Below, one piece after another: positions 26,541 through 28,731 of a stretch of DNA of 53,282 bases (position 1 is its first letter; every line of letters starts with the position of its first letter). Both the position numbers and the translations under genes were made by a program. The DNA comes from Actinomycetota bacterium (GTDB taxonomy: Bacteria; Actinomycetota; Thermoleophilia; Solirubrobacterales; 70-9): positions 1-53,282 of the forward strand of contig JAFDWG010000331.1 in NCBI GenBank assembly GCA_018268605.1, written 5' to 3'. The notes below the pieces were generated by a model that saw nothing but the letters and a program-made list of their open reading frames with translations, made no database searches and was not told where the DNA came from.

Positions 26541-27113
26541 GTGAGCGGCCCCGAGGAGAACGTCGAGCCGGCGCAGTTGGCCCCGGCGAAGAAGGCGGAG
26601 CTCGACCGCGCCTTCGAGGACTTCTACCGGGCCCACCTGCGCGACGTCTATTCCTACGCCTACTACCGGGTGGGGAACCACCACGACGCCGAGGACCTCA
26701 CCGAGCAGGCGTTCCTGCAGGCCTACCGGCACTTCGACCGGGCGCGCCGCGAGTCCGACGGCCGGCCGCTGCGGCCGTGGCTGATCCGCATCGCCCACAA
26801 CCTGGCCTCGAACTACTACCGGGACCGCTCGCGGCGGCCGCAGACGCCACTCGACAGCGCCGACCCGATCGCGGCGCGCCACGACACCGAGGACCTGGTC
26901 GCCGGGCGGGAGGAGCTGCGGCAGGTGATGGCGAACCTGGAACATCTCTCCGACGACCGTCGCGAGGCCCTGATCATGCGCTTCGCGCTGGGCATGGACA
27001 ATCGCGAGATCGCGCGGGCGCTGGGTCGCTCCGACGGGGCGACCAAGGTCCTGATCCACAGGGCGATCAAACAGCTGCAGGAGGAGATGGGCGGCGATGA
27101 CACCGACGGGTGA
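26541..27113 (+). CDS. ECF-type RNA polymerase sigma factor
   Basis: 190 residues. Region 2 is seen as FEDFYRAHLRDVYSYAYYRV and HHDAEDLTEQAFLQAYRHFD, with RPWLIRIAHNLASNYYRDRS completing it. Region 4 is LSDDRREALIMRFALGMDNR and EIARALGRSDGATKVLIHRA. This is the two-domain layout of extracytoplasmic function sigma factors. The start is a leaderless GTG. The stop overlaps the start of the next gene by 17 bases, so the membrane protein encoded there is a candidate regulator. Confidence 0.93.
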   Translation: MSGPEENVEPAQLAPAKKAELDRAFEDFYRAHLRDVYSYAYYRVGNHHDAEDLTEQAFLQAYRHFDRARRESDGRPLRPWLIRIAHNLASNYYRDRSRRPQTPLDSADPIAARHDTEDLVAGREELRQVMANLEHLSDDRREALIMRFALGMDNREIARALGRSDGATKVLIHRAIKQLQEEMGGDDTDG

Positions 27114-27444
27114 GCAGGGCGAGTCGACCTGGGACGTCGAGGCGCTCCTCAGCGACGCGCTGCGGCCGATCGACCCGCCGGAGCGGCTCTCCGGGCGGAT
27201 CGAGGACACCTTCACGGCGCTCTCGGCGGCCGCCGCGTCGGAGCTCTCCGACTGGGCCGAGGAGCTGACCGATTCCGAGATGCGGGCGCTGCGCGACCCG
27301 CGCAACTGGGTGCGGCCGGTGGTCGCGGTCGGCGTCGGCGGGGTCGCGACCGGGGCCCTCGTCCTGTTCGAGCTGCGCCGCCGGGGCAAGCAGGAGGCAA
27401 ACGGCCTGAAGGGCCTAGCCGCCGGCGTCCGCGACCGGTTCTAG
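27097..27444 (+). CDS. Single-pass membrane protein, possible anti-sigma partner
   Basis: 115 residues. The N-terminal 75 residues are acidic and soluble (DVEALLSDALRPIDPPERLS), then WVRPVVAVGVGGVATGALVL forms one transmembrane helix and the tail is basic. Its ATG lies inside the end of the ECF sigma gene. Tight coupling of a sigma gene to a one-helix membrane protein is typical of anti-sigma factors, but the sequence has no zinc-binding HxxxCxxC motif and no recognised anti-sigma domain. The 3' end overlaps the convergent DUF4383 gene by 30 bases. Confidence 0.7.
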   Translation: MTPTGEQGESTWDVEALLSDALRPIDPPERLSGRIEDTFTALSAAAASELSDWAEELTDSEMRALRDPRNWVRPVVAVGVGGVATGALVLFELRRRGKQEANGLKGLAAGVRDRF

Positions 27445-27828
27445 GCGTCGCGGCGTCCCCGCGCCCGCCAGCAGTCCGAGGATCCCGAGCGTCAGGTTCA
27501 GCGCTTCGTTCGCGCCCGCGGCGGGGAGGAAGCCGAGGATCGCGCCTCCGGGCTCGAGTGAGAGTCCCCAGACACCGAGGACGGTCAGCAGGAGGCCGGC
27601 GCCGAGCGCGTAGGAGCGCGAGAACGACCCCGCGGTGAGGAGCCCGAGCGCCCCCAGCGCAGCCCAGAGAAGGTTCAGCCAGGCGTTGGTGCGCAGCAGG
27701 CCCAGGGTGTGGTCGAGGGTTCCCGGGGAGCCGAACTCGGAGCCGTAGAAGAAGCCCGCGATGCCGAGGACGACCAGCAGCGCGCCGACCGCGGTCGCGT
27801 ACAGTCGGGCGGGGCTGGGGGGCTCCAT
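27415..27828 (-). CDS. DUF4383 family membrane protein
   Basis: 137 residues, four hydrophobic segments: LYATAVGALLVVLGIAGFFY, NAWLNLLWAALGALGLLTAG, YALGAGLLLTVLGVWGL and ANEALNLTLGILGLLAGAG. The order of helices and the central HTLGLLRTNAWLNLLW match DUF4383, a four-helix actinobacterial family of unknown function in which N.....H...G. is conserved. ATG 27828 is chosen; the frame stays open far upstream but that part is antisense to the rhomboid gene. A TACAAT box ends 8 bases before the ATG. Confidence 0.8.
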   Translation of the reverse strand: MEPPSPARLYATAVGALLVVLGIAGFFYGSEFGSPGTLDHTLGLLRTNAWLNLLWAALGALGLLTAGSFSRSYALGAGLLLTVLGVWGLSLEPGGAILGFLPAAGANEALNLTLGILGLLAGAGTPRRLEPVADAGG

Positions 27829-27855
27829 CGGCCGCGATTGTAGGCTCCTCTGCTC
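27829..27855. promoter_or_regulatory. 27-bp bidirectional promoter with overlapping -10 boxes
   Basis: ATTGTAGGCT at 27837-27846 carries plus-strand TAGGCT, 9 bases before GTG 27856, and minus-strand TACAAT, 8 bases before ATG 27828. The TA at 27841-27842 is shared. Confidence 0.65.
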
Positions 27856-28731
27856 GTGGCACAGACTTGCTACCGCCATCCGAACCGCGAGACCGGCGTC
27901 TCCTGCTCTTCCTGTGGGCGCCCGATCTGCCCAGAGTGCATGACGCCGACCCCGGTCGGCATGCGCTGCCCGGAGTGCTCCAACCAGCGGACCCGGGTGG
28001 TCCGCAACCCGACCGGGACGCCGACCGCGCTCTCGGCCGGCGGCTTCCCGGCGACGGTGGTGCTGATCGCGATCAACGTGATCGTCTACCTGATCGAGGT
28101 CGTCCACGGCTCCGGCGGCTTCTCGATCGGCATCGGGACCGCCTACGACCTCGGCGCCCTCTGGGGCCCGGCGGTCCACGAAAACGGCGAGTGGTGGCGG
28201 ACGATCACCTCCGGCTTCGTCCACTTCAGCATTCTCCACATCGCCTTCAACATGTACCTGCTGTTCATCCTGGGACGGCTGCTGGAGCCCTCGATCGGCA
28301 CGCTGCGCTTCGTCGTCCTCTATTTCGCCTCGCTCCTGGCGGGCTCGTTCCTGGCCCTCTGGTTCACGCCGGATTCGGTCAGCGCCGGTGCCTCGGGCGC
28401 GATCTTCGGCCTCATCGGCGCCGCCTTCGTGATCGCCCGGGGACGCAAACTGGACGCGATCGCCGGCCAGATCGGGATCCTCATCGTGATCAACCTCGTC
28501 TTCACCTTCGCCGACCGGGGCGTCAGTCTGGGTGCCCACCTCGGCGGCCTCGTCGCCGGCGTCCTCTGCGGCCTCCTGATCATCGCCGGCGAGCAAGGCC
28601 GCTACGGCCGCAATCTCAGCCGCGACAAACGGGTGGCCTTCGAGGTCGCCGCGATGGCCGCCCTGGGAGTGCTCAGCTTCGTCCTGGCGTTGGTGGCGGC
28701 GGGGTGGGGCGCGCCGTACTTCGTGGGCTGA
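27856..28731 (+). CDS. Rhomboid family intramembrane serine protease with N-terminal zinc-ribbon
   Basis: 291 residues. The first 45 residues hold four Cys pairs (CYRHPNRETGVSCSSCGRPI, CPEC, MRCPEC), a B-box-like zinc-binding head. Six or seven membrane helices follow. The catalytic Ser is in SAGASGAIFGLIGAAF (GxSG motif), the catalytic His in GVSLGAHLGGLVAGVLCG, and HFSILHIAFNMYLLFILGRL is the conserved HxxxN region of helix 2. Rhomboids cut transmembrane segments of other proteins within the membrane. Leaderless GTG start. Confidence 0.93.
   Translation: MAQTCYRHPNRETGVSCSSCGRPICPECMTPTPVGMRCPECSNQRTRVVRNPTGTPTALSAGGFPATVVLIAINVIVYLIEVVHGSGGFSIGIGTAYDLGALWGPAVHENGEWWRTITSGFVHFSILHIAFNMYLLFILGRLLEPSIGTLRFVVLYFASLLAGSFLALWFTPDSVSAGASGAIFGLIGAAFVIARGRKLDAIAGQIGILIVINLVFTFADRGVSLGAHLGGLVAGVLCGLLIIAGEQGRYGRNLSRDKRVAFEVAAMAALGVLSFVLALVAAGWGAPYFVG

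What the first reader, a model, noticed from the sequence alone, without database searches (positions are those of the whole stretch)
27829..27855. Divergent leaderless genes fired from one symmetric -10 box (DUF4383 and rhomboid)
Only 27 bp separate the start codons of the DUF4383 gene (ATG 27828, minus) and the rhomboid gene (GTG 27856, plus). ATTGTAGGCT contains TAGGCT for one strand and TACAAT for the other, sharing TA at 27841-27842, at the right distance (9 and 8 bases) for leaderless transcription on both sides. RNA polymerase cannot occupy both directions at once, so the two genes should be mutually exclusive per event. Bidirectional promoters from -10 symmetry are an established phenomenon; combining this with leaderless genes in both directions is not something I know as a described arrangement.
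Basis: partly seen in the sequence, partly recalled or inferred. Interest (0 to 1): 0.72.

Follow-up and report, generated by a model that had tools for sequence, protein, structure and literature searches.

The report
Two leaderless genes, one promoter box
In this soil actinobacterium two neighbouring genes facing opposite ways appear to start from one shared 10-letter promoter box with almost no untranslated RNA on either side; the box is unchanged in all 15 related genomes checked and the same layout recurs at about 18 other gene pairs, so it looks like a real and testable, though not unprecedented, way of packing two promoters into about 27 bases.

Summary
DUF4383 (ATG 27828, minus) and a zinc-finger rhomboid (GTG 27856, plus) are 27 bp apart, and ATTGTAGGCT holds TACAAT (minus) and TAGGCT (plus) sharing TA at 27841-27842. 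The host belongs to Solirubrobacterales (relatives of 'bacterium 70-9'), where about 20% of genes have TANNNT 6-10 nt before the start, so leaderless starts are normal here. CGATTGTAGGCT is invariant in 15/15 genomes of two genera, while only 3/55 fourfold-degenerate sites are. In one relative the DUF4383 start has moved away and gained a Shine-Dalgarno leader, yet the box stays. The layout is not unique: a KBL/GNAT pair has AGTGTAGGTT in 11 genomes of four genera. A scan for CAT-N8-ANNNTANNNT-N7/8-ATG finds 32 sites in the family, 26 with coding genes on both sides (about 18 distinct pairs), against 0/15 for a control centred on AT. Best reading: a bidirectional sigma-A -10 element of the published 23-bp class, with leaderless or near-leaderless mRNA both ways. 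Bidirectional promoters and divergent dual-leaderless pairs 82-120 bp apart are known; I found no paper with both from one box. New variant of a known kind. Start sites remain unmapped.

The parts
27415..27828 (-). DUF4383 membrane protein gene (137 aa), ATG at 27828-27826
   Evidence: ORF; Pfam PF14325 8.8e-15; start conserved in g1 relatives
27829..27855 (.). 27-bp gap between the two start codons; holds the whole promoter, no room for a leader with Shine-Dalgarno site
   Evidence: gap is 26-28 bp in all 12 genomes of the genus and one of the sister genus
27835..27846 (.). invariant 12-mer CGATTGTAGGCT
   Evidence: identical in 15/15 genomes of g1 and g9; its 11-mer occurs exactly once per genome in each of those 15
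27837..27842 (-). -10 element TACAAT for DUF4383, 8 nt before ATG
   Evidence: retained when the DUF4383 start moves 13-27 nt away (G026, G019)
27841..27846 (+). -10 element TAGGCT for rhomboid, 9 nt before GTG; shares TA 27841-27842 with the opposite element
   Evidence: TAGGCT is the commonest hexamer before leaderless genes of the genus (23 of 180)
27828..27830 (-). predicted transcription start zone for DUF4383 (0-2 nt leader)
   Evidence: inferred from box-to-start spacing and the 7-bp optimum in PMC12825309; not mapped
27853..27856 (+). predicted transcription start zone for rhomboid (0-3 nt leader)
   Evidence: inferred as above; not mapped
27856..28731 (+). rhomboid protease gene with N-terminal zinc-finger-like segment (291 aa), GTG start
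   Evidence: ORF; Pfam PF01694 1.4e-33; orthologues in all 43 good-quality relatives searched

Best explanation
ATTGTAGGCT is a bidirectional housekeeping-sigma -10 element: two TANNNT hexamers on opposite strands overlap by the central TA. Polymerase docks in either orientation, melts from the shared TA and starts 7-10 bp away, at or within about 3 nt of each start codon, so both mRNAs are leaderless or nearly so and are translated without Shine-Dalgarno sites. Only one orientation can be occupied at a time. Shown: the geometry, its conservation, the clade-wide leaderless signal, and recurrence of the layout. Inferred: activity in both directions, exact start sites, steric exclusion. The box is one instance of an architecture that arises repeatedly in Solirubrobacterales because leaderless starts leave no spacer between promoter and gene.
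For: TANNNT spacer histogram in genus sequence (1.05 Mb, 921 genes): 0 genes at spacer 5, then 63, 45, 40, 22, 14 at 6-10, background 2.4 per position; Shine-Dalgarno-like motif in 6.7% of these genes against 32% of the rest. Invariant CGATTGTAGGCT in 15 genomes against 3/55 invariant fourfold sites; its 11-mer core occurs once per genome and only here in all 15. In G019 DUF4383 has moved 27 nt further away and has a GAAGGAGGAG leader, yet TACAAT is intact. Where the boxes are separate (g11, 13 genomes, more similar to one another: mean 75% against 67% aa identity) the hexamers vary. Second locus, KBL-like acyltransferase/GNAT: AGTGTAGGTT in 11/11 shared-state genomes of four genera; unshared relatives vary. 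Family scan: 17/22 and 9/10 TA-centred sites have coding genes on both sides, 0/15 AT-centred controls, Fisher p=1.7e-6. Symmetric boxes are enriched before leaderless genes in short divergent gaps, 7/41 against 5/131, p=0.008, this locus excluded.
Against: No RNA data for any of these genomes; all are metagenome-assembled or unnamed. TACAAT is not itself an enriched hexamer among leaderless genes of this clade (3 of 336 outside this locus). Spacers of 8-10 are longer than the commonest value 6, so short leaders are possible. The invariance reaches interior positions that TANNNT does not require, which could mean an extra bound protein.
Confidence: 0.85

Rival explanations
1. Only the rhomboid promoter is real; the TACAAT reading on the other strand is coincidental and DUF4383 is transcribed from elsewhere.
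For: TAGGCT is the commonest leaderless hexamer and TACAAT is rare outside this locus (3/336). Rhomboid has TANNNT 7-12 nt before its start across the order, with or without a DUF4383 neighbour.
Against: The bases used only by the minus reading (CGATTG, 27835-27840) are as invariant as TAGGCT in 15 genomes. In g11 DUF4383 has its own separate -10-like element (GAGAAT or AACAAT) close to its start, so a nearby promoter is the rule. No other conserved TANNNT stands close upstream of DUF4383.
Confidence: 0.07
2. The conserved 12-mer is mainly an operator for a regulator that controls both genes, with the promoter resemblance secondary.
For: Conservation extends to interior positions that TANNNT does not need.
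Against: The 11-mer core occurs once per genome in the 15 genomes, so there is no regulon. It is not palindromic beyond TA. Other shared-box loci keep only the TANNNT skeleton with different interiors (AGTGTAGGTT, AGGCTAGCCT, AGTCTATGCT). Each interior also lies in the other promoter's -13 to -15 region, which may explain the extra constraint.
Confidence: 0.06
3. Both promoters are real but the mRNAs carry longer leaders because starts lie elsewhere, so the genes are not leaderless.
For: In two sister-genus species DUF4383 does have a leader from this box (about 14 and 28 nt).
Against: In the window and the 12 other genomes with a 26-28 bp gap there is no space for a leader downstream of the box and no Shine-Dalgarno site; the spacer histogram has a sharp edge at 6 nt.
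Confidence: 0.04

Closest known systems
Bidirectional promoters from -10 element symmetry (Warman et al. 2021, cited in PMC12825309; Warman et al. 2026, PMC12825309)
   Same: Overlapping -10 hexamers on opposite strands, one polymerase at a time. The TA-sharing geometry gives starts 23 bp apart at the optimal spacing, one of the three common distances (18, 10, 23 bp) listed there.
   Different: The passages read do not mention leaderless mRNAs; here both products are predicted mRNAs without leaders, both start codons lie within the initiation zone, and each -35 region falls inside the other gene's coding sequence.
Leaderless genes of Actinobacteria (Zheng et al. 2011, PMC3160421; Cortes et al. 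2013, PMC3898074; Shell et al. 2015, PMC4633059)
   Same: TANNNT about 10-12 bp before an ATG/GTG, no Shine-Dalgarno site, over 20% of genes.
   Different: Usually described one gene at a time with its own -10 element.
M. tuberculosis Rv1129c / prpD (Rv1130) divergent pair (PMC3898074)
   Same: Divergent neighbours, both mapped as leaderless.
   Different: Mapped starts 1254510 and 1254630 are 120 bp apart, too far for one shared -10 box.
Anabaena cvkR / cas12k (PMC9938897)
   Same: Divergent pair, both translated from leaderless mRNAs.
   Different: 82 nt between the start codons; no shared -10 element reported in the passages read.

Membership tests
Bidirectional (-10 symmetric) promoter | Two -10 elements on opposite strands overlapping in a known configuration | tested here: met
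   ATTGTA/TAGGCT share TA; the 7-bp optimum predicts starts at 27830 and 27853, 23 bp apart
Bidirectional (-10 symmetric) promoter | Both hexamers under constraint | tested here: met
   12-mer invariant in 15 genomes
Bidirectional (-10 symmetric) promoter | Transcription observed in both directions | not testable with these tools
   no RNA data held
Bidirectional (-10 symmetric) promoter | Mutually exclusive polymerase binding | not testable with these tools
   follows from geometry; stated for the class in PMC12825309
Leaderless gene | TANNNT -10 element close enough that transcription starts at the start codon | tested here: met
   spacers 8 and 9; clade range 6-10
Leaderless gene | ATG or GTG start codon | tested here: met
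   ATG 27828, GTG 27856
Leaderless gene | No Shine-Dalgarno site between promoter and start codon | tested here: met
   27829-27836 and 27847-27855 hold none; 6.7% against 32% clade-wide
Leaderless gene | Mapped mRNA 5' end at or within 5 nt of the start codon | not testable with these tools
   no 5'-end data held

The most novel reading that the evidence does not exclude
Dual-leaderless divergent pairs driven by one TA-sharing -10 element are a distinct, recurrent promoter architecture of Actinomycetota, conserved for whole genera and frozen in sequence because every base is read in both orientations, giving obligate coupling of two unrelated genes through polymerase competition with no untranslated region available for regulation.
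Probability: 0.4. Interest if true: 0.75.

Novelty: new variant of a known kind. Interest (0 to 1): 0.57.

Why it matters
It joins two established phenomena, symmetric -10 elements and leaderless mRNAs, in the most compact divergent arrangement they allow, and shows that it is conserved and recurrent rather than a curiosity of one locus. Because transcription start, translation start and the competing polymerase site lie within about 28 bp, such pairs could be clean natural test objects for whether polymerase competition couples two genes. A candidate at pmt/rsmI in another actinobacterial family suggests it can be checked in cultivable species. It also gives a simple sequence rule (CAT/CAC-N6-10-ANNNTANNNT-N6-10-ATG/GTG) for correcting start codons of divergent genes in high-GC genomes.

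Tried and rejected
A generic sigma-70 scan found no promoter in 27400-28300: it requires a -35 element, which this clade's leaderless promoters lack (no -35 signal in 180 aligned cases). Rfam found only a tRNA in the window, so the gap is no known RNA element. A pattern search with a mistyped start (CATG) was uninformative. A phylum-wide pattern scan is swamped by chance matches in AT-richer genomes; only high-GC hits with genes on both sides, such as pmt/rsmI, were kept. The backwards-pattern control understates chance because CAT/ATG differ in frequency from TAC/GTA; it was replaced by an AT-centred control, against which raw counts differ little (22 against 15) while gene context differs strongly (17/22 against 0/15). 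Dual leaderlessness as such is no more frequent than independence predicts (about 0.4 per side, 21 of 109 pairs against about 17 expected), so that part is not special. A first rhomboid tree had one misread row and was rebuilt.

Full report
What is there. The gap between the DUF4383 start (ATG, 27828-27826, minus) and the rhomboid start (GTG, 27856, plus) is CGGCCGCGATTGTAGGCTCCTCTGCTC, 27 bp. TACAAT (minus, 27842-27837) lies 8 nt from ATG and TAGGCT (plus, 27841-27846) 9 nt from GTG; they share TA at 27841-27842. Both genes are genuine by Pfam and by orthologues starting at the same place. Neither segment downstream of a box contains a Shine-Dalgarno site.

Is leaderless initiation the norm here? 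The window lies in a 3.8-Mb draft genome. Named relatives are Solirubrobacterales/Thermoleophilia metagenome bins, including 'Solirubrobacterales bacterium 70-9'. In 1.05 Mb of the genus, TANNNT occurs at spacers 6, 7, 8, 9, 10 before 63, 45, 40, 22, 14 of 921 called starts, none at 5, against a background of 2.4 per position. About a fifth of genes are therefore of the leaderless type; they rarely carry a Shine-Dalgarno-like motif (6.7% against 32%) and have no -35 consensus. Spacers of 8 and 9 are ordinary. The sharp lower edge at 6 fits transcription starting at least 7 bp downstream of the box.

Conservation. The 12-mer CGATTGTAGGCT is identical in all 12 genomes of the genus and all three of the sister genus, although only 3 of 55 fourfold-degenerate third positions in the two flanking genes are invariant. 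GATTGTAGGCT occurs once in each of these genomes, and only here. The gap is 26-28 bp in 13 of them. In the other two the DUF4383 start has moved away. In G019 the new 35-nt segment carries GAAGGAGGAG just before ATG, so the transcript would be leadered, yet TACAAT is unchanged. This natural variant argues that TACAAT drives DUF4383 in its own right. In g11 the two genes are still divergent, but each has its own box, most gaps being 40-60 bp, and there the hexamers vary between species that are more similar to one another than the shared-box species are.

Recurrence. Sampling divergent pairs turned up other cases with exactly the same overlap. A KBL/AONS-like acyltransferase and a GNAT-domain protein share AGTGTAGGTT in 11 genomes of four genera; unshared relatives have varied hexamers. 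obgE and an SDR gene share a box in another family of the order. Scanning 50 family genomes for CAT-N8-ANNNTANNNT-N8-ATG and the N7 form gave 10 and 22 places; 9 and 17 have coding genes beginning at both ATGs, about 18 distinct pairs, against 0 of 15 for the AT-centred control (p=1.7e-6; the both-sides threshold was set after the first look at the TA-centred hits). One of them, glutamate formiminotransferase/aldo-keto reductase, has the perfect palindrome AGGCTAGCCT in three genomes. Outside the class, pmt and rsmI share AGCCTACGAT in two inspected species of another actinobacterial genus, and the same string appears in two more. The family scan used only two spacer combinations and only ATG starts, so counts are lower bounds. 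The symmetric form ANNNTANNNT is enriched before leaderless genes in divergent gaps under 60 bp (7/41 against 5/131, p=0.008).

How it most likely works. The TA-sharing overlap places optimal starts 23 bp apart, one of the common distances of bidirectional promoters (PMC12825309). Polymerase binds in one of two orientations and initiates at or within about 3 nt of the start codon. In mycobacteria an RTG at the mRNA 5' end is sufficient for translation (PMC4633059). Simultaneous binding in both orientations is sterically excluded. The interior of each hexamer is also the -13 to -15 region of the opposite promoter, which may explain why shared boxes are frozen; this step is inference.

Known or new. 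Bidirectional promoters are known, leaderless genes are known, and divergent dual-leaderless pairs are known at 120 bp (Rv1129c/prpD, PMC3898074) and 82 nt (cvkR/cas12k, PMC9938897). In the held library I found no description of both mRNAs leaderless from one shared -10 element; the main 2021 paper was not held, so an unnoticed precedent is possible. I rate it a new variant of a known kind.

Noticed in passing
L309 1501-1531 and L311 1501-1531 (unnamed actinobacterial genomes of another family): pmt-like mannosyltransferase and rsmI-like methyltransferase genes start 25 bp apart with a TA-shared box (AGCCTACGAT); the same string occurs in two further genomes of that genus. As I recall, M. tuberculosis Rv1002c/Rv1003 are the same divergent neighbours.
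   Followed up: partly
L266, L276, L277: Glutamate formiminotransferase and aldo-keto reductase genes share a perfectly palindromic box AGGCTAGCCT in three genomes of the window's genus.
   Followed up: partly
L017 (G019), L016 (G026): Same shared box, but the DUF4383 start has moved away; in G019 it gained a Shine-Dalgarno leader. A natural switch from leaderless to leadered translation without change of the promoter box.
   Followed up: yes
window 26541-27444: ECF-type sigma factor gene (plus) overlapping a 115-aa ORF without Pfam match, whose 3' end overlaps the 3' end of DUF4383 by 30 bp (27415-27444).
   Followed up: no
L230 (G027), L242 (G016) upstream of the GNAT gene: The KBL/GNAT pair in other genera carries two separate -10 boxes in place of one; the shared state needs at least four changes on the gene tree, so sharing and splitting recur.
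   Followed up: partly
G009:C33:35732-36109: G009 carries a second DUF4383 copy away from the rhomboid gene.
   Followed up: no
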